From an uncultured Lachnospiraceae bacterium (GTDB lineage Bacteria; Bacillota; Clostridia; Lachnospirales; Lachnospiraceae), in NCBI GenBank assembly GCA_951802115.1, contig CATOPL010000002.1, positions 124,001 through 188,000 of the forward strand: a stretch of 64,000 nucleotides of DNA, given 5' to 3'. The notes below the pieces were generated by a model. That model did not search any database. It was given only the letters and a program-made list of their open reading frames with translations, and had not been told where the DNA came from. Made by a program: the position numbers and the translations under genes. Below, in pieces: positions 7,026-29,667 of the stretch; within the stretch, counting starts at the first letter, position 1; every line of letters begins with the position of its first letter.

Positions 7026-9273
7026 AAAAATGGTTCTACTATTTGTTTATTATAATATTGTTGACTTTACCGACATTACCGTCTTTACTGAAAATGTCCC
7101 GTCAGAATCGGGAATATGACTGTAAAGCCAATGGACAGATATACGAATTAGAGACGAAGCAACCAGTTACCGAAGAATTATTATTAAAAGACAGATTTAC
7201 AAAGCTTGGAATTTGCTTTCAGATCAACGGAGATATTTCCCCAAAAAGCAGAATCAGAATTACTCTTAAACAGAAGGAACTTTTATTTTCCGAAGAATTC
7301 TATATAAATAAAATTAAGAGCGGAGCGCCCGTATTTTTTGATAACCCTGGCATTCAAAAAGGTGATTTTCTGCTTTCGATTGAATGCCTGGATTTATCGG
7401 AAGGCGAAAATATCGGTTTGTTATTGTCAAACGACACTGCATTGGGACAGATTTCTGATAATGGTTTTCAAAAAGGGAGCGCCGTCGCTCTCTCTGTTGT
7501 CACAGAATTTAGTTTTCCATGTATATGGCTCCAGACCGTCATGCTTTTCTTTTCTCTTCTGGCCGCTCTGTGTGTTGGGAAATTTTTGTTGCAATGCGGC
7601 AATACAGAACCGGAGAAAAAACAGGAACGGGTTATTTTTCTGGCGTGCATGAGCATTATCTTGTGTCAAATGTACTGCAAGTATCCAATAAGCGTGGGGG
7701 GGGTGAAGCATATTTTGAGATAGAGGGTTTATACTTTGGAGACGTCTACCAAAAAGGCCTTCGGGGATTTTTCACAGGAGACGCCGGATATCTTCCGGTT
7801 TTTCCCAAAGTGATCAGTCTGTTCCTTATAGCTATATTGGGTGTTTCCAAATATGCTCCATTTTTCATGCAGATCATATCTCTGGCTGTTATCGCAGGTG
7901 TTTTTGCTTTTTTTATTACAGAAAATTTTTCCGGTTATTTCAGCTCAAAAGTAAGATTTCTTATTGTGCTGATTATGAGTTGTACGCAGCTTCTGGTGAC
8001 AGAGTCACAAATGATTCTGTTTCTGAACTTTTCATATTTTGGTATTTTATTAGCCGCATATATTTATATGCTCAATTTAGAAAAGAAAAGCGTGACAGGC
8101 TGGTGCTTAGTATCCGGACTGATGATTGCATCAAAAGGAACTTATCTGGTATTACTTCCCATTATTGCAGCAGTGATCCCCCTGTGCATCAGATGCAAAA
8201 AATATCGAACTCTGAAATATACGCTATGGTTAGAATTCTGTCTTTTGGTTCAGTTGATTTATGTATTTTTCAGTTCATCCAATGAAAAGGTGATCGCTGA
8301 TACAAATATCAAATTTTTTATTAAACAGACGTTATCTGCAATATGGTATTACATCGCAACTGTTGTAAAAATTATTTTTTTAATGAATGAACACATAAAT
8401 CCATTTGCTGTTTTTTTCTTTGGCATCTTGATTCTACTGTTTGTTCACGGGTATATCCTGGTTCTTATTTCCAGAAAAAATGCAAATGGAATACTGTTAA
8501 TTTGTCTGGAAACAGCCGCCTTTTTACAGATTCTAATCAATCAGCTGGGAAATGAAAGAAGCGCAAAATTCGTCAATGAATCAGGTATTGGATTGAGGGA
8601 ACTGTCAAGCACACCATTGTACACTTATGAAAAAAATGTTTTTTTCGTATATGTTTTTTTGATGATGGCAGCGCTGTTTTTAATTCATGAATTCATGACC
8701 CAAAAGCACCAAAGACGTCTTGGAATGATAATTCTTATAGGACTCGCAGCAAAAGGAATGCTGCTGCGTCCTCAGGATATGTATGTAGAAGACTCCATTG
8801 GCAACTGGATGGGATACAGCGTTATGCTGACGCAGTCGGATTATGCAATCCCAAATTATAATACTAAAAGATTTCTTATAAATAATTGCCGTATTGCATA
8901 TTTGGGAGAAAAACAGCATCTTCCAACAGGTCCTTTTCGAGGATTGAGTGGGATAAGGGCTGAAGATATCGTCTATTTTGATGATCCAAACCGGAGGAAA
9001 TATTGTCTGGATGAATCTATTGCCCAGAACAGATTGCTGGCGGTTTATACTCAAAAATTGTTTTTGTCCCAGACAGACGATATTTATTGTGTATTCAGAG
9101 ATTCCAATAATCACATTGTCTGGAAACAGCCGGCGGTCACATCGGACATGCGAACACTTGCGGTGGGATTCATTCCTGACGCGCCCGTTGAAAATTGCAG
9201 CAGTTTTGAATTCCGAAACAAAAACGGTGAAATAATAGATTTACAGTCTTTCTGTTTTCTGGCAGTGCAATGA
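7022..9273 (+). CDS. Large membrane protein, frame broken at a G8 run (phase-OFF)
   Basis: Two consecutive reading frames make one gene. The first runs from ATG 7022 (ATGA overlap with the kinase-fusion stop) and ends at 7723; the second is open to 9273. They meet at a run of eight G at 7696-7703. A run of nine would fuse them into about 750 aa. The N-terminal 233 aa have a leader helix, a soluble beta-rich domain and a helix at about 165-185. The second part has about nine membrane helices and a short soluble tail. A motif FFTGDAGYLPVFPKV just after the join suggests a GT-C-like or YfhO-related membrane enzyme. In the present state only a roughly 230-aa truncated product is expected. There is no counterpart in cassette B. 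Confidence 0.75.
7696..7703 (+). repeat. Poly-G tract, 8 G (OFF state)
   Basis: Eight consecutive G on the coding strand of the membrane-protein gene, near codon 225. Eight G put the upstream frame onto a stop about 20 nt later at 7721-7723. Counting codons across the run shows that nine G (or six) restores the downstream frame that is open to 9273. This is seen directly; that the run changes length in the population is inference from the behaviour of such runs in other bacteria. Confidence 0.85.
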
Positions 9274-9327
9274 ATGAAAAAGTTTACATATCCGCCATAT
9301 TTACGGCTATAGCCTGGAGGAGTCAAA

Positions 9328-9346
9328 CGGGCATACAGCATGTCCG
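9328..9346. promoter_or_regulatory. Intergenic dyad, repeated at 28024-28042
   Basis: An imperfect inverted repeat with arms CGGGCAT and ATGTCCG and a 5-nt spacer, in the 118-bp gap between the membrane protein and the HAD gene. A near-copy with similar flanks lies in inverse orientation at 28024-28042. It could be a protein-binding site, an RNA hairpin or a remnant of a small mobile repeat; no poly-T follows, so a simple terminator is unlikely. Confidence 0.35.
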
Positions 9347-9391
9347 TCTGAATTGATATCTGTAGAAATAAAACGACAGTTTGGAGATTAT

Positions 9392-10042
9392 ATGAAAATC
9401 AAAGGAGTTATATTTGATCTGGACGGGACGTTGTACGATTACGAAACGTGTAACCGCCTCGCAGAAAAACAGCTTATGGAAACCGTCTGCAGTCAGTTTG
9501 GTATTTCCGGCAAAACAGCGCGCACGCTGTTTTCCGAAGCCAAAAGAATTGTTAAAAAGCAGGCCGGAAATACTGCTGCTTCGCACAATCGTCTGCTGTA
9601 CATGCAGATCTTATGCGAACTGCAAAAAGTCCCTCCTTTAGTCTGTGCATTGGATTTTTATGAATTCTATTGGAGTACAATGCTGGAAACCATGCAGCTT
9701 TATCCTTATGTAAAACCGGTATTCAAATTTCTGCATCAGCATAACTGCGCGATTGGGATTCTTACAGATCTGACCGTCCACATACAACACCGCAAGATCA
9801 GAAAGCTGGGCATTGAAAAGGAGATTGATTATTTTACGTCAAGCGAAGAGGCCGGCGCCGAGAAACCGTCCGATATCATATTTGAAAAAATGCTGCAGAA
9901 AATCCCCTGCGAACCTCAGGAACTTCTGATGATCGGCGACAATCAGGAACGAGATGTCCAGGGCGCACTACATGCAGGGATGCAGGCGATTTTATTCAGG
10001 CCCGATATGGATATTTTAGAACAAATAAAAGAAAGAATATAA
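9392..10042 (+). CDS. HAD-superfamily phosphatase, cassette A
   Basis: This 216-aa protein carries all four HAD motifs: DLDGT (nucleophile Asp and acid/base Asp), LTDLT (motif II Thr), the motif III Lys in EKPSD, and GDNQERD (motif IV acids). A helical cap domain lies between motifs I and II and contains ASHNRLLYMQ, conserved in the cassette B copy. It should hydrolyse a phosphate ester of a small metabolite. I chose ATG 9392, preceded by GGAG at 9383-9386, over an upstream in-frame ATG at 9353. With the kinase domain and aldolase it probably handles intermediates of one sugar or polyol route; the substrate is unknown. Confidence 0.8.
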   Translation: MKIKGVIFDLDGTLYDYETCNRLAEKQLMETVCSQFGISGKTARTLFSEAKRIVKKQAGNTAASHNRLLYMQILCELQKVPPLVCALDFYEFYWSTMLETMQLYPYVKPVFKFLHQHNCAIGILTDLTVHIQHRKIRKLGIEKEIDYFTSSEEAGAEKPSDIIFEKMLQKIPCEPQELLMIGDNQERDVQGALHAGMQAILFRPDMDILEQIKERI

Positions 10043-10060
10043 AAATCAGAGAAGAAAAAT

Positions 10061-10774
10061 ATGAACAAACTAAAACTGAGCATTGTCGTTCCCTGTTATA
10101 ACGAAGCGGAAAATATACCGCTGATACTGGAACGTTTTCAAACGGTCATCAAAGGCAACAACATAGAAGTGATTCTTGTGAACAACGGATCAACCGATGC
10201 TACCGATGAGATTTTACAGTCTTTGCTGCCTGGCTATCCGTTTGCAAAATCTGTAGTCGTTCCTGTGAATCAGGGATATGGGTATGGAATTGTGCAGGGA
10301 TTAAAACAGGCTGACGGAGACTATATTGGCTGGACGCATGCAGATATGCAAACCGACCCGAAAGATGTGATAAGGGCGTACAGGCTGATTTTGAAAAAAG
10401 CGGATGAACGGCTTTATGTAAAAGGAACCCGCAGAGGAAGACCATGGTCCGACCGTTTTTTCACCTGGGGAATGAGTGTTTTTGAAAGTATCTACTTTGG
10501 TATGCCCCTGCGGGATATCAATGCGCAGCCCAATATATTTCCCGGAGATTTTTTTGAAACCTGGGAAAATCCGCCGTCTGATTTTTCACTTGATTTATAT
10601 GCGGTCTATACGGCGGCCAGAAGCGGGCTTCGGATCGTAAGATTTCCCGTCCTGTTTCCGAAACGAATACACGGAAAGTCCAAGTGGAATACGGGGATCG
10701 TATCCAAATACAGATTTATCAGAAGAACACTGGAATACAGTAAAAATCTAAAGCATTCACTGAAGGAGCTTTGA
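10061..10774 (+). CDS. DPM1-like family 2 glycosyltransferase, cassette A
   Basis: This 237-aa GT-A enzyme begins LSIVVPCYNEAENIPLIL, has VNNGSTDAT for nucleotide binding and THADMQTDP as its DxD-like metal motif, and ends with HGKSKWNTG, characteristic of dolichol/undecaprenyl-phosphate mannose or glucose synthases. It has no membrane anchor. The likely role is loading an activated sugar or related group onto undecaprenyl phosphate for the GT-C enzymes of the cassette. The paralogue is at 14283-15044. A GAAGAAAAAT ribosome site precedes ATG 10061. Confidence 0.75.
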   Translation: MNKLKLSIVVPCYNEAENIPLILERFQTVIKGNNIEVILVNNGSTDATDEILQSLLPGYPFAKSVVVPVNQGYGYGIVQGLKQADGDYIGWTHADMQTDPKDVIRAYRLILKKADERLYVKGTRRGRPWSDRFFTWGMSVFESIYFGMPLRDINAQPNIFPGDFFETWENPPSDFSLDLYAVYTAARSGLRIVRFPVLFPKRIHGKSKWNTGIVSKYRFIRRTLEYSKNLKHSLKEL

Positions 10775-10786
10775 AGGAGAACAGCT

Positions 10787-11818
10787 ATGCAAACGTTTAT
10801 AAAGATGTCAAGATATGCAGGGATGAGAGAAGATCTTGTACAGGCCGGAGGCGGCAATTCCTCTGTAAAAGTATCGGAAACCCGTATGATCATTAAGGCT
10901 TCCGGATACCAGCTGGCCGATATAACGGAGACGAAAGGATTTGCAGTTGTCAATCCCGATATCATCAGGAAATCTTTCCAAAGTCCGGATTTCCTGTATA
11001 AAATGACAGAGAAAGAAGGTACGGCCCTTCTCCGGAAAGCTTTTGTCCAAGGAGAGAAACCGTCTATCGAAACCTTTCTCCACGCGTTTTTAAATCGTTA
11101 TACGTTACACACGCACCCGATTGTGGTAAACGCATTAACGTGCAGAGAGAATGGAATGTCGGTACTGCAGGAACTTTTTCCCGGAGCGCTGATGGTTCCC
11201 TATGCAACGCCGGGGGCAGAACTGGCGAAAACATACTTTGAAGCTTATCAAAAAACAGCTCAAAATACCGACTCAGTATGTGAAGTGGTATTTATGCAGA
11301 ACCATGGCTTGTTAGTCAGCGGCAGTACGGCTGATACTGTCATCAGAAAAACAGAAGAGATTGTGAGAACCATCGAGCAATATCTGGATTGCAATATGGA
11401 GGCGTATCATACGGTAACCGAACTATGGACATACTTTCCGGAGAAAATAATCTGGAGGGTGACCGATCAGCATATATATGCAGCGTATGAAAGCTTTGGC
11501 GGAATATGGAAACATACATTCTGCCCTGATTGCGTCGTATTTCTGGGCAGGAATATATTAAATTCCGAATACGAAAATCTGGCTGCCGCCCTGGAGAGTT
11601 TTATCGCTGATTACGGGCGCCCGGCGGTCATCCGACTGGGAAAAGAGTTCTATTTAGTTGCAGACAGCGTCCAAAAAGCCATGGAACTGCAAAGTATTTT
11701 AAGCTTTAGCGCCCAGGTCATGATGCTGAACCAGGGACAGACATGCAGATTCCTGCCGGATGAAGAACAGAAGTATCTGCTTGGGTGGGAAGCGGAAAAA
11801 TACAGAAAACAGCGATGA
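10787..11818 (+). CDS. Class II aldolase/adducin-family protein, cassette A
   Basis: This 343-aa protein has the class II aldolase fold in its first 220 residues: LVQAGGGNSS near the start, the zinc ligands His108 and His110 in HTHP, and His173 in QNHGLLVSG. The family includes fuculose- and rhamnulose-phosphate aldolases and ribulose-5-phosphate 4-epimerase. The C-terminal 120 residues are an extra domain with FCPDCVVFLG, not part of short aldolases, and shared with the cassette B copy. It could cleave, form or epimerise a phosphorylated ketose used by the cassette. AGGAGAAC precedes the ATG. It is the last gene of cassette A; its stop lies 8 bp from the convergent stop at 11827. Confidence 0.75.
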   Translation: MQTFIKMSRYAGMREDLVQAGGGNSSVKVSETRMIIKASGYQLADITETKGFAVVNPDIIRKSFQSPDFLYKMTEKEGTALLRKAFVQGEKPSIETFLHAFLNRYTLHTHPIVVNALTCRENGMSVLQELFPGALMVPYATPGAELAKTYFEAYQKTAQNTDSVCEVVFMQNHGLLVSGSTADTVIRKTEEIVRTIEQYLDCNMEAYHTVTELWTYFPEKIIWRVTDQHIYAAYESFGGIWKHTFCPDCVVFLGRNILNSEYENLAAALESFIADYGRPAVIRLGKEFYLVADSVQKAMELQSILSFSAQVMMLNQGQTCRFLPDEEQKYLLGWEAEKYRKQR

Positions 11819-11826
11819 ATATCTCT

Positions 11827-12426
11827 TTAGAAGAACTGCCGCCATAATTCAATCTGATGAGCTTTCGTACAGACGGCATCCATCTTCATGCCGTGCTCTT
11901 TTAACCAGCTTGCATATGCCGGGATCTCCTCTCCTCTTCCCTGCAGTTCCGGTGATACAAAACAAAGGCGGTAACCCAGCTGCTTTAACTCTTTGTATTC
12001 CTGAGGCCCGATGGGAAGCTTGGTAAAGCAGTCCACCCAGATCCAGTTTACTTTTCCAGCCATATTTCTGGCAGTATCCAGGCCTTCAAACTCGGAAATG
12101 CGGATTGCCGTATTCTTTTCTCCATGACTGCTCAATAAAAAGATCATCGGAAAAGAGCAGTCCAAAAAGAAATAATCTTTCACTGCATATTTTTTCAGCA
12201 GCTCCAGTATGTTCCATTCAATTCGCTCGCTTTTTATATTGAGAATCATCGTGCCATGATGATATTCTTTCAGATATTCCTCAAAATCCTCCCCTGGCTC
12301 AAAAGGATTATGCTGAATATAAATTCTTCCATCCAGGGAATCTCTTAAATCCAGTTCCACTCCGTACTCCTGTGGCAAACTTCTAAGTTCTCCGGCAGAG
12401 TTGACTCTGTGCGCAATATATTCCAT
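11827..12426 (-). CDS. GDPD-like TIM-barrel protein, cassette B copy
   Basis: This 199-aa paralogue of the protein at 2732-3343 shares MEYIAHR, YGVELDLRD, QHNPFEPGE and VSPELQGR. His6, Glu24, Asp26 and the HNP motif are all kept, so the departure from the usual GDPD HD motif is conserved in both copies and unlikely to be a random loss. It is the final gene of the long minus-strand run, whereas in cassette A the same gene comes early, so gene order has been reshuffled. Function is uncertain, as for its paralogue. Confidence 0.65.
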   Translation of the reverse strand: MEYIAHRVNSAGELRSLPQEYGVELDLRDSLDGRIYIQHNPFEPGEDFEEYLKEYHHGTMILNIKSERIEWNILELLKKYAVKDYFFLDCSFPMIFLLSSHGEKNTAIRISEFEGLDTARNMAGKVNWIWVDCFTKLPIGPQEYKELKQLGYRLCFVSPELQGRGEEIPAYASWLKEHGMKMDAVCTKAHQIELWRQFF

Positions 12427-12440
12427 TCTTCCAACCTCCT

Positions 12441-13469
12441 TTACGTTACTGTCTGTCTGTACTTTTCCGCGTCCCAGTTCAGAAGATCACTTTGTTCCTG
12501 TTCCGGCAAAAAGATACATTCTGCCTCTTTGTTCATTTCCATGACCTGGGCGCTGAAGCTGAGAACACTTTGAATCTCAAGCGCTTTTTTTACACGGTCC
12601 GCAGCTATATAAAGTTCTCCTTTATAACATATTAAAACGGGAGTTCCATATCTGTTTTCAAATTCTTCTTTTTGTGCCCTGTCTGCTTTGTCGTTCAAAT
12701 ACAATATTTTTTTTCCAAGAAATACCACACAATCAGGACAAAATGTATACTGCCATATGGAGCCGCGTCTGTGATATTCCCGAAGCACATTTGCATCGGT
12801 TACCCGCCATATGATTTGGTCTTCGAACATTTCCCATATTTTTGTTGCGTCATGGTATGCACGAAAGTCTGTTTTAAGAAAACGTTCAATTTTATCCGTT
12901 ATCTCTTCGGTTTTTCTGATTACCGCTTCGGAAGTCTCACCGGAAACGACCAGTCCATGGTTTTGCAGGAACACGACATCTGGTATTTTTTCGTTTTTAA
13001 AGTCTTTTTTATACGAAAGAACATATGCTCTGGCGAGTTCTGCGCCCGGTGTTGCATATGGCACAAGAAGCGCCTGCGGAAACATCTTTTTCAACAGCTC
13101 CATGCCGCCTTTTCGGCAGGTGAGTGCATTCACCACAATCGGATGTGTATGCAGCGTATATGTTCCTGAAAAAGCATGCAGAAAAGTTTCTATGGATGGC
13201 TTTTCCCCCTTCAGAAAAGCTTTCTCCAGTATCTGCCGGCTGTCTTCCTCCGTTATGGCAGCAATATCTGACGTTAAAAAATAATCGCGAATGACAGATG
13301 GATTTATCCATGCATATCCGGTCGTTTCCGTCAGATCTGCCAGTGAAACCCCGGATGCTTTGATGAGCATCCGATCACTTGAAATTTTGCAGGACGAATT
13401 GCCGCCTCCCGCCTGAACCAGATCTTCCCGCATTCCCGCATATTTTGATATTTTTATAAAGTCTTTCAT
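12441..13469 (-). CDS. Class II aldolase/adducin-family protein, cassette B
   Basis: This 342-aa paralogue of the cassette A aldolase shows the same landmarks: KYAGMREDLVQAGGGNSS, LHTHPIVVNALTCR (zinc His pair), QNHGLVVSGE and the C-terminal FCPDCVVFLG domain. By eye identity to the A copy is a little over half. It follows the phase-variable methyltransferase gene and precedes the GDPD-like gene by 14 bp. It is likely to act on the same class of phosphorylated sugar as its paralogue. There is no homopolymer run in the gene. Confidence 0.75.
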   Translation of the reverse strand: MKDFIKISKYAGMREDLVQAGGGNSSCKISSDRMLIKASGVSLADLTETTGYAWINPSVIRDYFLTSDIAAITEEDSRQILEKAFLKGEKPSIETFLHAFSGTYTLHTHPIVVNALTCRKGGMELLKKMFPQALLVPYATPGAELARAYVLSYKKDFKNEKIPDVVFLQNHGLVVSGETSEAVIRKTEEITDKIERFLKTDFRAYHDATKIWEMFEDQIIWRVTDANVLREYHRRGSIWQYTFCPDCVVFLGKKILYLNDKADRAQKEEFENRYGTPVLICYKGELYIAADRVKKALEIQSVLSFSAQVMEMNKEAECIFLPEQEQSDLLNWDAEKYRQTVT

Positions 13470-13527
13470 CGCTCCCTCACATTCTAATAATTCTGAAACA
13501 GGTCACCCATATTTTTGCTTTGATGAG

Positions 13528-14332
13528 CTACTTTTTTTGCAAAACGACAGAACATCCACATGCGAAGACGGACGGAGCCAGACGCACCAAAAACCTGTCA
13601 AGCTTTTCGATGGCAGCAGCGCATTTGTCTCCCATGGGAATATAAAAAGTCTTTGCGATCACTCCTCCTGAGAGGAGAAACAGAAGACATTCATTTCGCG
13701 TTCTTTTTATGATTCTGTATGCCGGAAACTCATCACAAAATACCCCCCCCTGCAGAATGTGCAAAGAAAAGGAGCTTGGGGACAGAGCAGTTTGCAGACC
13801 AGGGATCTGACGGGTTATTACAAATGGTTTCTCTGTCAAATACATTTATGGCATCCGACCATCCTTCATGCCTCATGATTCTTAATACGGTTTTCATCAG
13901 CGTACCAGTATAAATGTCTTGAATGATAATTCTTCCGCCCGGTTTTAGTTTGGGATTTACATGGTCTAAAAAAGATGCCGGATTGGATAGATGATGAATC
14001 ATATGCGAACACACAATGACATCAATACTTTCATCTGAATAATCGATATTTAAAGCGTCCACATACTGATCAACCCATTCATGCCTTGCAACGTCAGTCA
14101 GAATGAGTTTTTTGCTTTTTATGAACTGTTTTGACAGGCCTGCTCCGCATCCCAGTTCCAGTACGGTTTGATCCGTCGTCCTGATATAGTTATTCATCCA
14201 GGAAAATCTTTGTCTGAGCAGATGATACAAAATCCTGTTCTTTCCGGTCAGAAAATATTCTCTTGCCGAAACAACATTGCCTTCATTTCTCATTCTGTTC
14301 TTTTCGTGTTTTGGAAAATATTTGTTTTTCAA
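13528..14332 (-). CDS. SAM-dependent methyltransferase, frame broken at a G8 run (phase-OFF)
   Basis: The first frame (14332 to 13733) encodes a class I methyltransferase with the SAM loop VLELGCGAGLS, an acidic LTDVA after strand 2, and a DVIVCSHMIHHLS motif IV region. It ends eight codons into a wrong frame after a run of eight G at 13743-13750. The next frame continues VFCDEFPAYRII and stays open to 13528. Seven (or ten) G would fuse them into about 267 aa. The truncated form keeps the SAM fold but lacks the C-terminal 70 residues. The TTG start at 14332 has GAGG eight nt upstream and overlaps the GT2 3' end; ATG 14293 is an alternative. A likely role is O- or N-methylation of the glycan or its precursor. 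Cassette A has no copy. Confidence 0.75.
13743..13750 (-). repeat. Poly-G tract (C on + strand), 8 nt (OFF state)
   Basis: Eight G on the coding strand of the methyltransferase near codon 195, followed by TATTTT. Upstream reading gives Ala-Gly-Gly-Gly-Ile-Leu-stop; with seven G it reads Ala-Gly-Gly-Val-Phe and continues for about 70 residues. Among the six runs in the window this is the only one whose in-frame length is 7 or 10 rather than 9. Confidence 0.85.
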
Positions 14333-15044
14333 ATCCTTTATCCTCTTTAAAACTATGTTTCAATTCCCGGCTGAATTTTAATGTCCGCTTTATAAACTTA
14401 CATCTGGATTTCAGACCATCCGTATTCCATTTGGACTCTCCGTGTATTCGTTTTGGAAAATCCACTGCAAATCTGACCACCTTTACTCCCTGCCTTTTGG
14501 CCATGTATAATGCATATAAATCCAGAGCAAAATCATATGGAGGATTTATCCATGAATTAAAAAAGTCCACCGGGAATATATTAGGCTGCGCATTGATATC
14601 CCAAAGGGGCGTTCCAAAATAGATGCTCTCAAATAACCCCATGCCTTTGGTGAATAATTCATCAAAAGCAGGGCGTCCTCTTCTGAAACCTTTTACAAAA
14701 ATCTTTTCTTGCTTTCTTTTTTGAAGAAGGGCATACGCCTTCACGATATCGGCCGGATCGGTCTGCAGATCTGCATGCGTCCATCCAATATAATCCGCAT
14801 CCGCAGATTTCAGCCCCTGCAGAATCCCATAGCCGTATCCCCGATTTACCGGAACAGCGATGCTTCTTGCAAACGGATATTGGGGAACCAACTCGTCCAT
14901 CACCCTGGCTGAACGATCGGTAGAACCATTGTTTACCAAAAGAACCTCAATCTTTCTTCCTCCAATTACCTCATGAAATCTTTTGAGAACCAATGGAATA
15001 TTTTCTTCTTCGTTATAACAGGGGATCACAACTGCCAGCTTCAA
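14283..15044 (-). CDS. DPM1-like family 2 glycosyltransferase, cassette B
   Basis: This 253-aa GT-A protein is a paralogue of 10061-10774: LAVVIPCYNEEENIPLVL, LVNNGSTDRS, THADLQTDP, INAQPNIFPVDFF and HGESKWNTD. The long shared stretches around the acceptor end suggest the same donor and lipid carrier. It begins 4 bp after the acyltransferase stop and its 3' end overlaps the methyltransferase start, so it is probably translationally coupled. It is inferred to load undecaprenyl phosphate on the cytoplasmic face. Confidence 0.75.
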   Translation of the reverse strand: MKLAVVIPCYNEEENIPLVLKRFHEVIGGRKIEVLLVNNGSTDRSARVMDELVPQYPFARSIAVPVNRGYGYGILQGLKSADADYIGWTHADLQTDPADIVKAYALLQKRKQEKIFVKGFRRGRPAFDELFTKGMGLFESIYFGTPLWDINAQPNIFPVDFFNSWINPPYDFALDLYALYMAKRQGVKVVRFAVDFPKRIHGESKWNTDGLKSRCKFIKRTLKFSRELKHSFKEDKGFEKQIFSKTRKEQNEK

Positions 15045-15048
15045 AACA

Positions 15049-16029
15049 TCACCTCTTCTTTACACTGCGGATAAGCCAGTTGGTCGGAAAACCAAAAATA
15101 TCAAGTGACAATATACCTGTAATCACAATCGAAAGGATGGTCCATAGGAGATAACCGGCCGGAGAAATGCAGATATATTCCGGTACTCTTGCGGCAAACA
15201 CTAGACTTCTGACCATGATATGCCAGAAGTATATTTGCATGGTCCTTCTTCCAAGAGTGGTAAGTCCTGGAACTCTTTGGGATGGAATAACTGAGAGCAG
15301 TGATAACGACACAACAATAACTACTGCGTAGTAAATCAGTTTGACGATTATCCAGATCGCAGACAGTGTTGGATATACACGATTCGCTCCATATAAAAAA
15401 GCCATTTTTGAAATGCTTACACACCCGTTTCTGCCTAGTATTGTCACCAGAATATATGTCGCCAAAATACCCCCCCCCGCCCACGAAAACATTCGTTCTG
15501 ATTTCAGAACTTTTTCTGTCTTTTTAAAATCCAGCATAGATCCTAAAAAGTAAAAAGGATACCAGGATACCATTTTTGCTATTGCCATATAGTTCATCAG
15601 CGAAGAATCATAACATGCGACACATCCCAAAAATACGGAAACCGTCAAAACCATATGTTTACTGCAGTCTCTGAACAGATATGTGAGCAGCGTACACATG
15701 GCGATGGTCAAAACAAACCAGGGAATCTTTGTCGCTTTGAAAAGATAAAAATCCTGTACTTTACCAAGCAGTACATGATCTACCACAATCAATGCAGCGT
15801 TATAGAGAATCCCTGTTATAATCAGGCTGAGAACCCGTTCCCGGACTTTTTCATGGCGGTGAAAAAGACCCGAAATAAATATAAATAAAGGCATATGAAA
15901 CAAATAGATACCATTATAGATTGCTTTGGATATCTCATCCTTTCGCAGCATAAAATGAGCTGCAACCACTAACAGAATCAATATTCCTTTTACATTATCC
16001 CAGTAATGCTGCCGTTCGTTCATATACAT
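15049..16029 (-). CDS. Acyltransferase 3 family membrane protein with a G9 run (phase-ON)
   Basis: This 326-aa protein has about ten membrane helices and the family-3 opening YWDNVKGILILLVVAAHF, with the conserved His in AAHF, as in OafA, WecH and fucose O-acetylases. It would O-acetylate (or acylate) a sugar of the polymer at the membrane. The frame is intact across a run of nine G at 15470-15478 (codons about 184-187); any change not divisible by three would truncate it there. ATG 16029 and ATG 16023 are both possible starts; AAAGGA lies just upstream. There is no acyltransferase in cassette A. Confidence 0.8.
   Translation of the reverse strand: MYMNERQHYWDNVKGILILLVVAAHFMLRKDEISKAIYNGIYLFHMPLFIFISGLFHRHEKVRERVLSLIITGILYNAALIVVDHVLLGKVQDFYLFKATKIPWFVLTIAMCTLLTYLFRDCSKHMVLTVSVFLGCVACYDSSLMNYMAIAKMVSWYPFYFLGSMLDFKKTEKVLKSERMFSWAGGGILATYILVTILGRNGCVSISKMAFLYGANRVYPTLSAIWIIVKLIYYAVVIVVSLSLLSVIPSQRVPGLTTLGRRTMQIYFWHIMVRSLVFAARVPEYICISPAGYLLWTILSIVITGILSLDIFGFPTNWLIRSVKKR
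15470..15478 (-). repeat. Poly-G tract (C on + strand), 9 nt (ON state)
   Basis: Nine G on the coding strand, read W-A-G-G-G-I-L in frame and followed by TATTTT, the same flank seen at the runs at 13743 and 23744. Adding or losing one G would truncate the acyltransferase. Confidence 0.85.
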
Positions 16030-16648
16030 CCATTCCTTTCACGTATCTGACAGCCTGCATACCAACCGATATCGCTCCGTCAATATCCTTTCTCTGATTG
16101 TCACCGATCATTAGAGCTTCTTCTGGCAGCACGCTTAATTTTTTCAGCATCCGTTTAAAGATTTTCCTGGATGGTTTTTCTTCTCCTGCCTCCTCACTCG
16201 TAACCAGGCAGTCAATTTTTCCGGACAAGCCCAGTGAGATGATTTTTCTGTATTGAATATGTGCGGTTAAATCGGTCAGAATTCCTGTTTGTATTCCTCT
16301 GTTTCGCAGAGAGCCTATAAATGGATTTACATAATCAAATAATTCCATTTCCCTTAACATCGTGTCCCAGTATACATTGTAGAATTCCAGTGCGTATTTT
16401 AAGGGGTCTTTTCCGAGCTGTTCGCATACATTCTGCATATATAACAGACGATTATGCGATGCGGCAACTTCCGCTCCCAGGTTTTCCTTAACCTTGATTT
16501 TTGCTTTTCTGACGGTTTCCTCTGCGGCTTCATAGGTGAGGTTCAGATTGGCGGAAATCATTCTGTACAGATGATATTCTGCAATCGCATTGCACCGGTC
16601 GTAGTCATACAGCGTATTGTCCAGATCAAATATGACTGCTTTTATCAT
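15995..16648 (-). CDS. HAD-superfamily phosphatase, cassette B
   Basis: This 217-aa paralogue of 9392-10042 has DLDNTLYDYDRC (motif I), ILTDLT (motif II), EKPSR (motif III Lys) and IGDNQRKD (motif IV). Motif I has DxDNT in place of the A copy's DxDGT; both are common in HAD enzymes. I chose ATG 16648, which overlaps the preceding stop as ATGA and sits about 10 nt from AAAGG, over the in-frame ATG at 16657. The 3' end overlaps the acyltransferase start. It is likely a phosphatase for the same small phosphorylated intermediate as the A copy. Confidence 0.8.
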   Translation of the reverse strand: MIKAVIFDLDNTLYDYDRCNAIAEYHLYRMISANLNLTYEAAEETVRKAKIKVKENLGAEVAASHNRLLYMQNVCEQLGKDPLKYALEFYNVYWDTMLREMELFDYVNPFIGSLRNRGIQTGILTDLTAHIQYRKIISLGLSGKIDCLVTSEEAGEEKPSRKIFKRMLKKLSVLPEEALMIGDNQRKDIDGAISVGMQAVRYVKGMDVYERTAALLG

Positions 16649-18723
16649 CCCTGCCATCCTTTCATCTTTTCACTGATCATAAAAAGTAATACGATCTGGA
16701 TCACTCCCTCCACATCCGTACCCCATTGGGGATAATAAGTGAAAAAATCCTCATATTGCGGAATATTAATTTCCGCTATTTTTTCAAACTCAATATTCTG
16801 CAGCAATTCCCTGCCATCAAAGGTAATTTCCTGATGCTGGAAGTCGTCACAGATTTTTTGTTCCGGAAAAACATGATATATCCGGAAGGATGCAAGCAGC
16901 CGTTCAATGTTCAGGTTTATATTGATTCGAAACTTAACGCTTAATTCTACTTTGTGATGCTCCTGGAAGGCGCTTTTGAGCGTTTTATCAAAATAGGTAA
17001 TCACCAGATCCGCATATTCTTTTTGGGGATAGATGTATTTTTCTGCGTCAGAGATCCTTTTCCTGATCTGAGCAATAATCTCTTCCTTTGAATATCCGCG
17101 GGAGGAAACGTCCCGTTCAATCTTCCAGAAATTGCGAAGTTCGTCGTCCGTATCCATGTAAATTTTCAGATCCAGCTCTTCTCTGAGAACAGGAAGATAC
17201 AAAGAATGCAGCCCACACAGCACGATATATTTTCTGGTGTTTATCTTTCTGCGCTCTGTAAACTCACCGGTGAGATGATCATATTCCGTCCGCAGCACAT
17301 AATTCCCTCTTTTTAATGTTCGAATATCTTCTGCCTGCCGGTACAGAAAATTTGCCTGTGGATCCAGGGCAGTGACTTTTTGCCAGTTTTCGTCATTTCT
17401 TGCCCATCTGTGGTCCCCGTCTCCTTCAATAAACAGGATATCCTTTCCACTCCCAAATAAATGTTCGATTTTTTCCAGAAGCCGGCTTTTGCCTGCGCCG
17501 CTGTCACCGGCTACGCCTATCACAAAAGCGTTTCCTTTTCTTTGATACAGTTCGTTACTTGCGATTCCAAACCGATAAATTTTACAGATGATGACTCCGA
17601 GTGCAGCCACCATGACCGAAAATACAACAGACCGCAAAGTGGAATTATGGCTTTTCAGCCACTGGAGGCTGTTCCCCATGAACACAATGTCTGTACAGTC
17701 TGTCCTGTGCAGAAATATAAAATAAATCAGGTACACAATATTAAAAAATACATAGACCATCATGGTCTTATATTTATCTTCCACAACAAATCCAAAGTAG
17801 AGCGTATAGAAAGGTACTGCCCACAGATACCATGCCGGCATGGGAGAAATGCAGATGAGAAACACCGTAAACAGTAATCCCAGCATGGAGATCAACAGAT
17901 TCTTGTTAAAATAGTTCAGCTCGAATATATTAAGATATACAAGCAGCAATACCACAATCGGAATCGCCAGCCGTACAGCACCGTAATCAAAATGAACGGC
18001 GGTCAGTGAGAACTGCTCTTTATTGAGCAGCACGGTCTGTATAAATCCATTTCCCCAGAATGGAATACAGGAAGCGATCACAATCAAGGCAGACCACACA
18101 TGATATTTTATGGATGTCATATAATTCTTTTTCTTGGCCATATAGAGAAACAGGATTGGCACTGCAGCCATGATATGAAATTTACATCCGATGGAAATTC
18201 CCAGAAAGACCGCATAAAAAGCAAGGTGATACTTTTTCTTCCAGTTCAGCAGGTGATATATGGCAATCAGAAGAAGTACGGTCGGTATGATATCCAGCTG
18301 GCCGTGCATGCACGTACTGTATAAAACTACAGGGGACGCAAAATAAAACACGACTGCATATTTAAACCGGACCTTCATTTTACAAAGGATCATGAATCCG
18401 GTCAGATCAAAGATCAGGAGCGGCAGTTTGAATATAAGATTCTGCCAGAAGACTCCTGCGGGAGATAACAGCCCTAAAATCCCCCCCCCAACGCCTTCAA
18501 TCAACAGCATAAACGGGAAATATGGAAAGGATGCCGGCAAACCGTTTTCGTAAAAAAATTCATATGGATTTTCTCCTGATAAAAATACCTTCACAAACGG
18601 AATAAACATCTGATCCTGATAATCCGATGAAAACAGTCCCATGAGAATCAGCTTGAAAACCAGAAGCACACCCATGATGACGCCTATATTAAAATTTACA
18701 CGATGAAATACCGTTCTTTTCAT
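16645..18723 (-). CDS. Membrane glycosyltransferase fused to a phosphoribulokinase-like kinase, cassette B (phase-ON)
   Basis: This 692-aa paralogue of 4941-7025 has a GT-C membrane half with HGQLDIIPTVLLL, then a kinase half with Walker A AGDSGAGKS, EGDGDHRW, YDHLTGEF, CGLHSLYLP and YPQKEYADLVI, all matching phosphoribulokinase landmarks. A nine-G run at 18481-18489 falls near codon 79 inside the membrane half (EGVGGGILGLL). The A copy reads SVSGAIAAVL at the aligned place, so the run was gained or lost after duplication. A slip would silence both the transferase and the kinase, because the kinase domain lies downstream in the same chain. Confidence 0.8.
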   Translation of the reverse strand: MKRTVFHRVNFNIGVIMGVLLVFKLILMGLFSSDYQDQMFIPFVKVFLSGENPYEFFYENGLPASFPYFPFMLLIEGVGGGILGLLSPAGVFWQNLIFKLPLLIFDLTGFMILCKMKVRFKYAVVFYFASPVVLYSTCMHGQLDIIPTVLLLIAIYHLLNWKKKYHLAFYAVFLGISIGCKFHIMAAVPILFLYMAKKKNYMTSIKYHVWSALIVIASCIPFWGNGFIQTVLLNKEQFSLTAVHFDYGAVRLAIPIVVLLLVYLNIFELNYFNKNLLISMLGLLFTVFLICISPMPAWYLWAVPFYTLYFGFVVEDKYKTMMVYVFFNIVYLIYFIFLHRTDCTDIVFMGNSLQWLKSHNSTLRSVVFSVMVAALGVIICKIYRFGIASNELYQRKGNAFVIGVAGDSGAGKSRLLEKIEHLFGSGKDILFIEGDGDHRWARNDENWQKVTALDPQANFLYRQAEDIRTLKRGNYVLRTEYDHLTGEFTERRKINTRKYIVLCGLHSLYLPVLREELDLKIYMDTDDELRNFWKIERDVSSRGYSKEEIIAQIRKRISDAEKYIYPQKEYADLVITYFDKTLKSAFQEHHKVELSVKFRININLNIERLLASFRIYHVFPEQKICDDFQHQEITFDGRELLQNIEFEKIAEINIPQYEDFFTYYPQWGTDVEGVIQIVLLFMISEKMKGWQG
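18481..18489 (-). repeat. Poly-G tract (C on + strand), 9 nt (ON state)
   Basis: Nine G encode three glycines in frame in the membrane half of the kinase fusion, followed by ATTTTA. The paralogous gene in cassette A has no G run at the aligned position, a direct internal control that the run is not required by the fold. Confidence 0.85.
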
Positions 18724-18728
18724 AACAG

Positions 18729-19535
18729 CTACTGTAAAAACCGCTTCTCCTTATTATAAAATCCGTTCCAGTATTCAAATGTTTTCTGATACAATTCGTA
18801 ATCCTCTGGAGTTCCCCAGCCAATATACCGGTCAATCTCAAATACTTTTGCCCGGTATCCCAGATCAAGCGCATGCTTTACCGTCTGATCCACATAAAAT
18901 TCATTGCGAATGCGATCGTTTTCCCGGATCATTTTTCTGGCAGCCTCAACAAAAATACTGCCTTTTCTGAACCAGAAAGTAGCGACTACTGCATGATCTT
19001 TCATGGGCTGACTGGAAATCGCCTTTTTGATAGACGTTCCCACAATATTTCCATGCTTGTCGACTTTCATCCAGCCATATGCATCCGGATTCAAAAGTAC
19101 AGACGTATGATTTCGGTATGTAAAAACGAGAACATCGGCTTCCTTTCTTAGTGCATGGTACCGGTCTGTATTCATTTCCATTCCATTATCGCAGCCTGCG
19201 ATCAAAAGCTCTTCGTCATTGTCTATCAGTGCTTCCGCCAGCAGACAGGTACAGGCCTGTCCTTCTGTAAGATGGTCTGTCGTGAGAAACCGGGATTGCG
19301 GAAACCATTCCAGAATGCATGTTTCTGTTCCGTCCTTTTTATGGAACTCCCTGTCTACGTATATTACATTGGAACCGCCGCTTTTTACTCCCGGCAGGTC
19401 AAGCGTTGCACAGACTACCATCGGTAACGGTCTTCCGGTCCGTTTGTCAAAAGTCGGTATGGCAGGCTTGCTTACGGTATATCCAGCCTCAGAAAAACGG
19501 CTGCCGGCCCCGGCCATTGGTATCAGTATATTCAT
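18729..19535 (-). CDS. Nucleotidyltransferase 2, cassette B
   Basis: This 268-aa paralogue of 4122-4931 has MNILIPMAGAGSRF, SKPAIP, GQACTCLLAEAL, AGCDNGMEM and DAYGWMKVD. The NTP loop, Lys and Asp motifs are intact. The ATG overlaps the stop of nucleotidyltransferase 1 as ATGA and the stop is 5 bp from the kinase-fusion start, the same gene order as in cassette A. It is likely to act on the product of the kinase or HAD step; the specificity is unknown. Confidence 0.8.
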   Translation of the reverse strand: MNILIPMAGAGSRFSEAGYTVSKPAIPTFDKRTGRPLPMVVCATLDLPGVKSGGSNVIYVDREFHKKDGTETCILEWFPQSRFLTTDHLTEGQACTCLLAEALIDNDEELLIAGCDNGMEMNTDRYHALRKEADVLVFTYRNHTSVLLNPDAYGWMKVDKHGNIVGTSIKKAISSQPMKDHAVVATFWFRKGSIFVEAARKMIRENDRIRNEFYVDQTVKHALDLGYRAKVFEIDRYIGWGTPEDYELYQKTFEYWNGFYNKEKRFLQ

Positions 19536-20311
19536 CTCTGTATGCCTTTCATTAATTCAATCCAGTATACGGATTCTGCCATGTCCTCAGGGGTTCCCCA
19601 CTGACAGAAGTAATCAATATCCGTTGGAACCCAGACGCTTAGTCCGTCTCTTACCATAAAGTTGTAAATCATGCTGGCGTAATATTCTCCGCTTAATTCC
19701 TGTCCTGACCGCACCAGCTGCCGCGCGTACTTTTTCAGCAGCTTTCCGCTTCGAAAATAATAAGTGCCAGGAGAATGTCTGGCTCTGGTTTTGTCTTCTG
19801 CAAAAGAATATTTCTCACGTATTTCGACCAGATAATTCTTCTTGTCGACCAGACAGGAAGCATAGAAATTTTCCGGCACCAGAAGATGCGGATGAAAGCC
19901 TGTATAACAGGGAACGCATCCGTCGCATCCACAAAGAAGCAGGTTGTTCTTCATCTGCGGCCAGTTCCATGACATGTAAAAATCACAGTAATTGATGATA
20001 CAGGGGCCATCGTCGTCGATTGCATCGGAAGCTCTTAAAACATCGAAGACAGGTCCCTTTTTGATCCAGTCCTGTACGGCGAATATTTCGGCAGTGGGGG
20101 CAATTTTATGTAGCTGTGCCCTCATACCGGCTATGGAATCCAGGTGCTCCTGCCGGCATACGAACAGAAGGTCCTTTTCTCCGGGGTATATTCCATCCAC
20201 GATCCACTGGAGAACAGGTTTGCCGGCCACTGGTATCAGGGGCTTTAATTCTCTAAATCCGGCATTTACAAAACGGGAACCATAACCCGTCATGGGGATA
20301 ATAATTTTCAT
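19532..20311 (-). CDS. Nucleotidyltransferase 1, cassette B
   Basis: This 259-aa paralogue of 3346-4125 starts MKIIIPMTGYGSRF and carries LKPLIPV, INYCDFYMSW and CQWGTPEDM. Length and motif spacing match the A copy exactly. AGGAC lies just upstream of the ATG and the previous gene ends 14 bp away. It and its partner form the most conserved pair between cassettes, marking nucleotide activation as the core of the shared pathway. Confidence 0.8.
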   Translation of the reverse strand: MKIIIPMTGYGSRFVNAGFRELKPLIPVAGKPVLQWIVDGIYPGEKDLLFVCRQEHLDSIAGMRAQLHKIAPTAEIFAVQDWIKKGPVFDVLRASDAIDDDGPCIINYCDFYMSWNWPQMKNNLLLCGCDGCVPCYTGFHPHLLVPENFYASCLVDKKNYLVEIREKYSFAEDKTRARHSPGTYYFRSGKLLKKYARQLVRSGQELSGEYYASMIYNFMVRDGLSVWVPTDIDYFCQWGTPEDMAESVYWIELMKGIQR

Positions 20312-20325
20312 AAACAGTCCTCCAT

Positions 20326-22149: not shown

Positions 22150-22185
22150 ATCAACCGTTCTCCTTAATAAATAAACGAATTTTAA

Positions 22186-23808
22186 TTATGGTTTTAAATC
22201 ATAAATATAAATACTGTTCCCAGTCAGTGATTCGCCGCTTAATAAATATTTTATTTGCTCCCTGATATTTTTTAAATCGTTTGCCTTGTGGTTGATACCC
22301 TTTCCACTGACGGAATAAATCAGTGGATATGTGTTTTCAATGCCCTGGTAAATCATATTTTCTGCGGGGTAGAGCTCCGGTTTGGCAGCATAACGTTTTT
22401 TATAAGAAGAACTGATTACCAGGTATTCTTTATCAGCCAGTTCAGGAACCACTGTCACGGATCCGTCTTCTTCCAGTACAAAGCAATCATGCTGGGGCTT
22501 GCGAACTGCAGTGTGCAGGGGCGTATAACCTTCATAGATACTGTTATCAACCGTTATGTCGTTTGCCGCGCAGTATTCCATTGCATGAACTCTGGTATCC
22601 TCTTTTAAGCTGTGAACAACTATGGATACAGAGGTCAAAAGAATACTTGTCATACCGATAATTCCTGCTGTTGCAACCGCAAAACGGATTCCTGAAGCAG
22701 CGAAACGATTTTTTATATGCGTTCTGCACTGCTCAAAAAGAAACAGAAAACCGGCTGCAGCAATCAGCACATATGCAATATACATTGGAAATCCCCAGCG
22801 CAGCCAGTGAAGAGGCAATATGCTGAGTATCATCCAGTACCCTGCATTCAATAACAAAGGCAGATATTCTTTTCTATGACTTCGAATCAGATGTGCGAGG
22901 CCGCAGAAAAAGCATATGGCGCTGACATATCCGAAGGAATTTACCGCTGTCGTAAAATAATAGTTCATATTTCCAAACAGCCCCAATCCGTCGGCGCCCA
23001 AGTGCGCGGTACGCGCTTCTCTTTCAAAAATGCCGATCAGCGTATGGATATCAGTGAACAGATTGGGAGCGGTTATAAACATGGTAATCAGTATAATCCC
23101 TGCGCACTGAAAGCCGACGGGAACTATCACCCGGTGCTGCTTGAAAGTAACTGCCCGATATATAACAATATACGCAATATAAAGCGTGATAACGGCAGCC
23201 GGATACTTGATTGTGATCGCGATTCCTGTTAAAACGGCAATAAAGTATAATGCCTTCATGCTGCCGTTTTCCAGATAATTCAGAGATTCATATGCGATTA
23301 CCACGAAAAAAAACGTTAAAACAATATCAGGCGTCGCGTAAGCGGAATGCTGTACAAAAATGTAGGAGAAGGCAAACAAACCGGCGGTGAGAATCTGGAT
23401 AGGAGCCTGCAGACGTTCCTCCTTTTTAAACATTTTTCCCGCCAGCAGCGCGCCAAACGGAATAAGCGCGCATCCCCAGAAAACGGTATAAAACCTTGCA
23501 ACGACGTAAAAAGCTCCCGGATGCAGTTCAAATGCTTCGTAGGCGGGAATACGATACCTCAAAAACGAAAAAATCTGAAATAAAACTGAACAGCATTTGA
23601 TTTCAAACTGATCAGGACGGTTATACACATAAGATTCCCAGGAATGTCTGGACAGCATCTCTATGGCGCTGTCCACAATGGTGTGTTCATCTGGATGAAG
23701 CTGACAGGGATATCCCCAGAAACAGCAGAGCGTACGTAAAATACCCCCCCCCAAAGTGATAAACACAATCATAATCCACGTTCTTTTTTCCGACATAAAA
23801 TTTTTCAT
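22186..23808 (-). CDS. GT39/ArnT-like membrane glycosyltransferase with a G9 run (phase-ON)
   Basis: This 540-aa protein with about ten membrane helices has the periplasmic-loop HPDE motif (QLHPDEHTIVD, near residue 36) characteristic of GT39 polyprenyl-phosphate-sugar transferases, where the acidic pair is catalytic. A run of nine G at 23744-23752 codes for Gly-Gly-Gly near codon 20, inside the first helix. A one-base slip would remove essentially the whole protein, making it the most sensitive switch of the six. It is likely to transfer a sugar from a lipid carrier to the polymer outside the membrane. Confidence 0.75.
   Translation of the reverse strand: MKNFMSEKRTWIMIVFITLGGGILRTLCCFWGYPCQLHPDEHTIVDSAIEMLSRHSWESYVYNRPDQFEIKCCSVLFQIFSFLRYRIPAYEAFELHPGAFYVVARFYTVFWGCALIPFGALLAGKMFKKEERLQAPIQILTAGLFAFSYIFVQHSAYATPDIVLTFFFVVIAYESLNYLENGSMKALYFIAVLTGIAITIKYPAAVITLYIAYIVIYRAVTFKQHRVIVPVGFQCAGIILITMFITAPNLFTDIHTLIGIFEREARTAHLGADGLGLFGNMNYYFTTAVNSFGYVSAICFFCGLAHLIRSHRKEYLPLLLNAGYWMILSILPLHWLRWGFPMYIAYVLIAAAGFLFLFEQCRTHIKNRFAASGIRFAVATAGIIGMTSILLTSVSIVVHSLKEDTRVHAMEYCAANDITVDNSIYEGYTPLHTAVRKPQHDCFVLEEDGSVTVVPELADKEYLVISSSYKKRYAAKPELYPAENMIYQGIENTYPLIYSVSGKGINHKANDLKNIREQIKYLLSGESLTGNSIYIYDLKP
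23744..23752 (-). repeat. Poly-G tract (C on + strand), 9 nt (ON state)
   Basis: Nine G in frame (L-G-G-G-I-L), followed by TATTTT. It lies only about 60 bp from the start codon of the GT39 gene, so the OFF product would be a very short peptide. Confidence 0.85.
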
Positions 23809-23832
23809 GAAATAAATCCCCTTATTTTTTGT

Positions 23833-24892
23833 TCATAAAAGCTTTCCAATAAACGGAATATGCTTCATGATCCATGTTGCGGCAAATCCCGCCGTACAGG
23901 CGACCAGGATCCAGATCAGGCAGGCTGGCAGACTGTGCAGATACGACTGCAGGAAATCGAATATTTTAACGGTTGCATGTCGGTAAATCTGTTCAAACAA
24001 ATATACGCCGAACGTCAGAGAACCAAGTAAAGAAATTATTTCTGACACGCGGCTGTCAGGCGGATGTTTCAAAAACCAGAATTTAACCGCATAAAAGACA
24101 GTTGCCGCCGGTATGAAAGTAAAGGCATTCAGAAATGTCTGACTGGAATTTTCATCTCCCATGTTTAGAATTCTCCAGTTATAATGTGTCAGCGCACAGC
24201 AGACAACAATGGCGACGAAGCTGATGGATGCTAGCATTACAAGCTTTTTCCAGGTATAGGATTCTTTATTTAATTGATTTTCCAGATAATAGCCAAGTAA
24301 AGGATAAAATACAGTTCTTTCAGTAATAAACAATGAGAAACGAGGATTAAGAGAAACCTCTCCGTGCCAGAGAAGAAATTGTATAATATCCAGGCATTGC
24401 ATTAGAAAATAAACCAATATGATGTATTTAAAGTCCTGATGATTTACCCCCCCCCCTGACAAATTTGCGCAGCAACGGCAGCATTAACAAATACGCCAGG
24501 TAAGAATACAGGTACCAGTATGCCGGAATTATCTGACTGGAGTATACAGTTCTGATAAATTCTGCGAAAGACGCCTCTGAAAAACTCCATTTTAAGGAAT
24601 ACATATAAGAAATAAACGAGCATACTGTCAGGATGAATAAAAACTTAAAAAAACGATTTTTAATTACATACGATACAGACTCTGTTTTTGGAAGCAGCAA
24701 AGCTCCAGAGATCATAAAAAATAAAGGAACCCCAGTTTTTATAAAAACAGCCAAAAACATATAAAACCAGTAAAATGGAGAATGATGCGCGACAGTAAAG
24801 AGAAGAAATCCTCTGGTTCTTGTGTGATTGAATAAAATCATAAATATTGCCGCAATACGTAAAAAATCCAGATAGGTTTTTCTGTTTTTCAT
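23833..24892 (-). CDS. Acyltransferase 3 family membrane protein, frame broken at a G10 run (phase-OFF)
   Basis: The N-terminal frame has YLDFLRIAAIFMILFNH with the family His, then several membrane helices, and terminates at 24428 shortly after a run of ten G at 24447-24456. The following frame continues VNHQDFKYIILVYFL with more membrane helices to 23833. Nine G would give one 352-aa protein, a normal length for the family. I chose ATG 24892, which overlaps the preceding stop (TGATG) and follows AGGA. It is a second O-acyltransferase, distinct from the one at 15049-16029, and currently off. Confidence 0.78.
24447..24456 (-). repeat. Poly-G tract (C on + strand), 10 nt (OFF state)
   Basis: Ten G, the longest run in the window, at codon 146 of the acyltransferase. 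Reading across gives Arg-Gly-Gly-Gly-Lys and a stop six codons later. With nine G the frame passes Arg-Gly-Gly-Val-Asn into the downstream membrane helices. Confidence 0.85.
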
Positions 24893-27981: not shown

Positions 27982-28023
27982 TTACTTCATTTCCTTTTTT
28001 GTTCCTGCAATCGATAGGTCTGG

Positions 28024-28042
28024 CGGATGTACAGTATGTCCG
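28024..28042. promoter_or_regulatory. Intergenic dyad, inverse near-copy of 9328-9346
   Basis: An imperfect dyad CGGATGTAC...TATGTCCG in the 103-bp gap between the flippase and the pyruvyl transferase. Read on the minus strand it and its flanks (CAAACGG before, a GAT-rich end after) resemble the site at 9328-9346. A short ATCGATAGGT just beside it (28009-28018) also occurs at 18-27. Confidence 0.35.
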
Positions 28043-28084
28043 TTTGGCTGCTGCCGGAGCAGGGCTGCGCAGCTTATTGCCCCG

Positions 28085-29524: not shown

Positions 29525-29572
29525 AATCGTTTTTCTGATTTATAAGTGGTCTGGTTTCTGCTTTTACCATAA

Positions 29573-29613: not shown

Positions 29614-29667
29614 CAACGGTCCAAAAACAGGAAACAGGCGGTTCATAATTTCGTTTTCTGTTTGAGG

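What the first reader, a model, noticed from the sequence alone, without database searches (positions are those of the whole stretch)
7696..24456. Six poly-G runs (8-10 nt) confined to one glycan region: a multi-gene phase-variation set
Runs lie at 7696-7703 (8), 13743-13750 (8), 15470-15478 (9), 18481-18489 (9), 23744-23752 (9) and 24447-24456 (10). All are G on the coding strand and inside genes. No other run of 7 or more G/C was noticed in the other 47 kb. Three genes are intact and three are broken precisely at the run. Five of six are in frame at 9 G, the sixth at 7 or 10. This is the classical slipped-strand design of Campylobacter, Neisseria and Helicobacter, and I know of little on it in Clostridia. 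Independent switching would give up to 64 surface states.
Basis: partly seen in the sequence, partly recalled or inferred. Interest (0 to 1): 0.92.

Follow-up and report, generated by a model that had tools for sequence, protein, structure and literature searches.

The report
Poly-G switches in gut-bacterium glycan genes
This gut bacterium (probably Lachnospiraceae) carries a cluster of slippery runs of G inside genes that decorate its surface sugars, so its cells probably switch these decorations on and off at random, a trick known from Campylobacter and Neisseria but not one we saw described for this group of gut bacteria.

Summary
All six runs are at the stated places; the window has no other G/C run of 7 or more. 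Three genes read through their run, three change frame at it. The set is larger: the genome has 17 runs of 8 or more, 9 within 61 kb (C2:87128-148456), three of them left of the window. Run lengths are bimodal (6:205, 7:15, 8:5, 9:9, 10:3). Related clusters agree: 33 runs of 8-11 in 74 loci, splitting ORFs more often than runs of 5-6 (9 of 29 against 36 of 848). Homologues of one methyltransferase carry runs at two, perhaps three, sites; runs recur at different places in two more families. Paralogues in strain 1XD21-29 have G7 and G10 at one site. Best reading: translational phase variation by replication slippage. Length change within one strain is untested. A promoter-spacer form (TTGACA, poly-G, TAWAAT) occurs in 19 of 348 family genomes, reversed pattern 0, but not in this genome. 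Known kind; apparently undescribed group.

The parts
7022..9273 (+). large membrane protein gene (family of about 780 aa), split at G8 7696-7703: upstream ORF 7022-7723, downstream frame within ORF 7519-9273
   Evidence: 5 of 6 homologous ORFs examined are single frames of 766-803 aa with 254-285 residues before the match, 246-252 expected; the sixth (L074, 330 aa) is itself split; upstream half fits the N-terminal profile of homologues at 11.9 bits, best of 200 shuffles 4.3
7696..7703 (+). G8 run
13528..14332 (-). SAM-dependent methyltransferase gene, split at the run
   Evidence: Pfam Methyltransf_23 on the upstream ORF; the two halves match one frame of L045 and two frames of L094; DNA alignment
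13743..13750 (-). G8 run (C on + strand)
14283..15044 (-). glycosyltransferase family 2, no run
   Evidence: NCBIfam likeness to polyprenyl-phosphate sugar transferases is far below cut-off
15049..16029 (-). Acyl_transf_3 O-acyltransferase, intact through the run
   Evidence: homologues have other residues at the site
15470..15478 (-). G9 run
16645..18723 (-). fusion of a multi-pass membrane half and a phosphoribulokinase-like kinase, intact through the run
   Evidence: paralogue 4941-7025 without the run
18481..18489 (-). G9 run; its codons lie in predicted helix 70-86
22186..23808 (-). PMT-type membrane glycosyltransferase, intact through the run
23744..23752 (-). G9 run
23833..24958 (-). 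Acyl_transf_3 O-acyltransferase split at the run: halves match profile 2-150 and 156-322 of 326
24447..24456 (-). G10 run
26890..37794 (-). surface polysaccharide genes without runs: pyruvyl transferase, flippase, O-antigen-ligase family, hexapeptide transferase, two GT1, heparinase-like, UDP-sugar dehydrogenase

Best explanation
The runs are evolved contingency tracts. During replication the polymerase slips on 8-10 G, adds or drops a base, and the reading frame downstream is lost or regained; each gene (O-acyltransferases, a methyltransferase, membrane glycosyltransferase-like proteins, a membrane-kinase fusion) thereby switches between full-length and truncated product, giving a population of cells with differently decorated surface polysaccharide. 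Shown: the runs, their bimodal lengths and clustering, frame changes at runs, runs at different places in homologous genes, different lengths at one site in paralogues. Inferred: that length changes within a strain, that switching is reversible and frequent, that the product is a surface glycan, and that phage or immune pressure maintains it.
For: Run spectrum in own genome 205, 15, 5, 9, 3 for lengths 6-10; 12 runs of 9 or more where decay from 6 and 7 predicts 0.09, or 1.25 with a generous ratio of 0.25. Nine of 17 runs in 61 kb, 0 of 200000 random placements, scan bound 2.7e-9, span chosen after seeing it. 74 related loci with 33 runs of 8-11; splits 9 of 29 against 36 of 848 for runs of 5-6. 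Methyltransferase homologues: window G8 split; L094 G10 split, about 12 nt from the window's position; L045 no run there, one open frame, with its own G8 in frame about 70 nt on. Membrane protein family: runs 674, 237 and 405 nt from the start in window, L088 and L098; three other copies have none. Kinase fusion: runs at different places in window, L111 and L096 (in L096 just past its match), and no G stretch above 6 at the window's site in 75 homologous segments. Strain 1XD21-29: paralogues 82% identical with G7 and G10 at one site; each changes frame within the 60-65 nt that hold the run. Pfam profiles continue across a split (24447; C11:74113, 1-27 then 28-210, the first part just under the cut-off).
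Against: No read-level or same-strain length data. The window and L094 methyltransferase runs may be one old run with an indel beside it: the aligner puts them together with an 11-nt gap. Six of the eight runs outside the cluster have no clear gene effect on my reading, though the caller scored three of those six as split. Only 18 of 74 related clusters carry a run of 8 or more, 6 carry two or more. Of 10 proteins looked up beside same-genus runs two are of glycan type. Mismatch repair genes are present, so rates may be low. The split caller is crude: runs of 8 or more A/T in the same loci, each read on both strands, score 18 of 127 (G: 9 of 25, p 0.014).
Confidence: 0.85

Rival explanations
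1. Assembly or base-calling errors at homopolymers broke three ordinary genes; the runs are otherwise unremarkable.
For: Long G runs are error-prone; the technology behind this assembly is not known to me; A/T runs in related loci also give split calls, 18 of 127 readings.
Against: Errors do not create the excess of 9-10 G runs, their clustering, or in-frame runs at different places in homologues. Of the nine A/T runs of 8 in the window, one lies at its edge and one between genes; the other seven lie in ORFs that stay open. The pattern recurs in other assemblies, one of them titled as a strain and not a MAG.
Confidence: 0.07
2. Decaying pseudogenes: the split genes are dead and the runs are mutational scars that will not revert.
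For: Five of nine cluster genes are split in this assembly.
Against: The split genes are open up to the run and open again after it; homologues in one frame exist for the methyltransferase and the membrane protein; intact neighbours carry runs too.
Confidence: 0.06
3. RNA-polymerase or ribosome slippage at G runs gives a mixture of products without change in DNA.
For: G runs can be slippery for RNA polymerase and ribosomes (recalled); nothing tested here.
Against: Different genomic lengths at one site in paralogues and a length peak in DNA point to DNA slippage; it may act in addition.
Confidence: 0.05

Closest known systems
Campylobacter phasomes (PhasomeIt, PMC6321876; passages seen)
   Same: Many G tracts of 7-11 in reading frames, SAM-dependent methyltransferases among them; its cut-off for G/C tracts is 7
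   Different: Other phylum (probable Lachnospiraceae); MutS and MutL present here, absent from Campylobacter as I recall
Neisseria coding-frame and promoter-spacer tracts (PMC5320596; passages seen; van der Ende 1995 seen only in its reference list)
   Same: Homopolymers in coding frame, and a second form between -10 and -35 (fetA)
   Different: Other phylum; the promoter form here is TTGACA, poly-G, TAWAAT in 19 of 348 family genomes, no exact match in the window's own genome
Bifidobacterium G-tract pilus switch (PMC9187656; passages incl. abstract seen)
   Same: Gut commensal, intragenic G tracts of 9-12, lengths vary in a population
   Different: Actinobacteria (recalled), a tract in the first gene of each pilus cluster; here nine tracts in one glycan region
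Clostridioides difficile invertible promoters (PMC11868660; passages seen)
   Same: Phase variation in Clostridia
   Different: Works by DNA inversion, not slippage

Membership tests
Simple-sequence-repeat phase-variable (contingency) genes | G/C tract long enough to be hypermutable and above chance | tested here: met
   (for 8 or more; for 7 or more the window test is weak)
Simple-sequence-repeat phase-variable (contingency) genes | tract lies in the coding frame so that length decides full-length or truncated product | tested here: met
Simple-sequence-repeat phase-variable (contingency) genes | genes act at the cell surface or on its glycans | tested here: met
   by Pfam family only:
Simple-sequence-repeat phase-variable (contingency) genes | tract length differs between strains or cells | tested here: inconclusive
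   differs between species and between paralogues; no two strains of one species were at hand
Simple-sequence-repeat phase-variable (contingency) genes | reversible high-frequency switching with phenotype | not testable with these tools
   needs culture and reads
Promoter-spacer (fetA/porA type) switches | tract between -35 and -10 with spacer near 17 | tested here: not met
   no exact match in own genome; only a weak candidate at C8:42085 (three mismatches); found in relatives

The most novel reading that the evidence does not exclude
Lachnospiraceae as a family run a two-form poly-G phasome: coding tracts, repeatedly recruited into O-acyl-, methyl- and glycosyltransferases of surface polysaccharide clusters, and promoter-spacer tracts in front of secreted and lipoprotein genes, so that common gut commensals diversify their surfaces within a host while keeping mismatch repair.
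Probability: 0.55. Interest if true: 0.78.

Novelty: new member of a known kind. Interest (0 to 1): 0.64.

Why it matters
If true, common gut commensals, not only pathogens, keep reversible surface diversity by slippage. That would bear on phage sensitivity, antibody targeting and strain-level metagenomics, where such genes are called broken or lost. Six of my paper searches joined phase-variation or slippage terms with Lachnospiraceae, Clostridia, Roseburia, Firmicutes/gut commensal or Clostridiales; none of the papers they listed was about poly-G switching in Lachnospiraceae. Lists were cut (20 of 41, 20 of 40) and the library is open-access only, so this is weak evidence of absence.

Tried and rejected
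Family-wide searches with the methyltransferase half, the PMT protein and the acyltransferase (348 genomes each) gave mostly distant homologues; eight of their loci were used for comparing run sites. A promoter scan with a fixed offset missed the promoters of L169 and was replaced by a pattern. The claim that all 17 own-genome runs are switches was dropped: six are intergenic or unclear. The idea that the genus shares this cluster was dropped: the 16 other genomes of the genus matched only the kinase half of the fusion or nothing. Rows dropped: 4 of 33 runs in the 74 loci lay within 400 nt of a locus end and were left out. In one search the caller scored window 7696 and 13743 as 'through' although the frames show a split, and scored C3:170210, C21:52404 and C29:12643 as split although I read them as unclear; of 17 own-genome runs it gave 8 split, 5 through, 4 other. 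Only 5 of 74 loci matched the downstream half of the 7022-9273 gene and none matched its upstream half by tblastn; the N-terminal profile match is weak (11.9 bits). The structure search listing (best 50 of 731) named kinases only; nothing listed there covers the membrane half. The A/T control is much less clear than the G5-6 control.

Full report
Observation. All six are G on the coding strand. The genes at 15470, 18481 and 23744 are open through G9; those at 7696, 13743 and 24447 change frame at the run. For runs of 8 or more chance does not explain it: 6 observed against a mean of 0.68 in 300 Markov-1 copies, none reaching 6; among 45 intact genes 3 observed against 0.32 under synonymous recoding, 2 of 500 reaching 3. 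For 7 or more the Markov test is weak (35 of 300 reach 6), and shorter runs are rarer than expected.

Genome context. The window is C2:124001-188000 of a 3.31 Mb genome with 17 runs of 8 or more. Nine lie in C2:87128-148456; three of these are left of the window: C2:87128 (acyltransferase, split), C2:102511 (acyltransferase, C9 on the coding strand, open through) and C2:123545 (hexapeptide transferase, split). None of 200000 random placements put 9 of 17 in such a span; the span was chosen after seeing it, and a scan bound is 2.7e-9. Runs of exactly 6 to 10 number 205, 15, 5, 9, 3 (derived from overlapping counts); decay at the 6-to-7 rate predicts 0.09 runs of 9 or more, 12 are seen. Outside the cluster a glycosyltransferase (C11:74113; profile 1-27 and 28-210 on either side, the first just under the cut-off) and a BTAD-domain regulator (C5:2686; only the downstream part has a Pfam match) are split at G9; the other six runs are intergenic or unclear on my reading, though the mechanical caller scored three of them as split.

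What the genes are. By Pfam the region is a surface polysaccharide locus: flippase, O-antigen-ligase family, pyruvyl transferase, UDP-sugar dehydrogenase, GT1 and GT2 enzymes without runs, and run-bearing O-acyltransferases, a methyltransferase, a PMT-type glycosyltransferase, a large membrane protein without a Pfam match and a membrane-kinase fusion. The fusion has a phosphoribulokinase-like C half; its run falls in a predicted helix of the membrane half. That the locus makes a capsule-like glycan is inference from families.

Relatives. One scan with the fusion and its paralogue (45% identical) gave 79 loci; 74 have long matches (571 residues or more), and 42 of those 74 record titles say Lachnospiraceae. 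The family of the window's own genome is inferred from this. In those 1.40 Mb, runs of 5 to 11 number 804, 75, 12, 10, 13, 7, 3; 18 of 74 loci have a run of 8 or more and 6 have two or more; 29 control loci around other kinases (103 kb, a small sample) have none of 8. With one mechanical caller, 9 of 29 runs of 8 or more split an ORF against 36 of 848 runs of 5-6 (p 5e-6; 4 of 33 runs near locus ends left out). A/T runs of 8 or more, each read on both strands, give 18 split of 127 against 9 of 25 for G (p 0.014), so part of the effect may be common to homopolymers or to gene borders.

Repeated recruitment. Methyltransferase: the window has G8 and is split; L094 (65%) has G10 about 12 bases away and is split; L045 (70%) has no run there, is open in one frame, and carries G8 in frame about 70 bases further on, where the other two encode Gly-Gly with other codons. 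The window and L094 runs may be one old run beside an 11-nt indel, as the aligner draws it; the L045 run is clearly elsewhere. Membrane protein family: runs lie 674, 237 and 405 nt from the start in window, L088 and L098; L097, L090 and a second L098 copy have none. Fusion family: runs at different places in the window, L111 and L096, and no G stretch above 6 at the window's site in 75 homologous segments. Strain 1XD21-29 (L074) has paralogues 82% identical at the DNA level with G7 and G10 at one site, each changing frame in the 60-65 nt around its run, and a third with C10 on the coding strand. A scar inherited once would not appear at several places in one gene family; selection for a tract somewhere in the gene can do this.

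Mechanism. I commit to replication slippage with frameshift switching. MutS and MutL are present and open, so the setting resembles Neisseria more than Campylobacter (recalled). Polarity in the long operons may couple some switches; I did not test it.

Second form. The same-genus genome G002 has two promoters, TTGACA-N9-G9 or G8-TAAAAT, in front of related secreted proteins. A pattern found 24 such promoters in 19 of 348 sampled family genomes, 0 for the reversed pattern (the spacer range is set by the pattern, and G002 was not in this sample). Of 22 places examined (20 fetched loci and the two of G002), 21 have an ORF of 60 aa or more downstream and about ten of these look like secreted or lipoproteins by eye. 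The reversed pattern controls for composition, not for promoters. No exact match is in the window's own genome.

Literature. Passages of PMC6321876, PMC5320596, PMC9187656, PMC11868660, PMC2831843, PMC13317340 and PMC6437147 were seen; other papers only in listings. Nine searches ran; none of the papers listed was about poly-G switching in Lachnospiraceae, but lists were cut. Orsi 2010 (PMC2831843) names Clostridia among the groups it sampled.

Verdict. Real, and well supported as poly-G phase variation in design; switching itself is unproven. Known kind, apparently undescribed group, with repeated recruitment as the new evidence. On checking I weakened the methyltransferase claim (two, perhaps three, sites); the odds did not need to change.

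Noticed in passing
L169:2317 and L169:7999; L183-L202: Promoter-spacer poly-G tracts (TTGACA, G7-11, TAWAAT), 24 in 19 of 348 family genomes, about ten of 22 examined before secreted or lipoprotein-like genes.
   Followed up: partly
L074:35-7201: Paralogues of the large membrane protein in strain 1XD21-29 with G7, G10 and C10 tracts, frames changing around each tract.
   Followed up: partly
window 3322-11818 and 11827-20311: Two convergent gene sets with matching families (kinase fusion 45% identical, class II aldolase, GT2, HAD, weak nucleotidyltransferase matches); only one kinase copy has a run.
   Followed up: partly
window 16645-18723: Fusion of a multi-pass membrane half and a phosphoribulokinase-like kinase with relatives in 74 loci; no structure in the listing covers the membrane half.
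   Followed up: partly
L007:1820-3077 (C5:2686): BTAD-domain regulator split at G9, a possible switch of a regulator.
   Followed up: no
window 26122-26890: GT2 gene whose N-terminal part lies upstream of the listed start and follows a TGA without a usual start codon.
   Followed up: no
L165:8030: Dam-like methyltransferase gene with G11 near its end in a same-genus genome.
   Followed up: no
L044:47 and L177:8014: Similar elements of the form TTTTCGGAC(A/G)GTCT, poly-G, TAAAGT in two genomes, in L177 upstream of a secreted-protein-like ORF; perhaps another promoter type.
   Followed up: no
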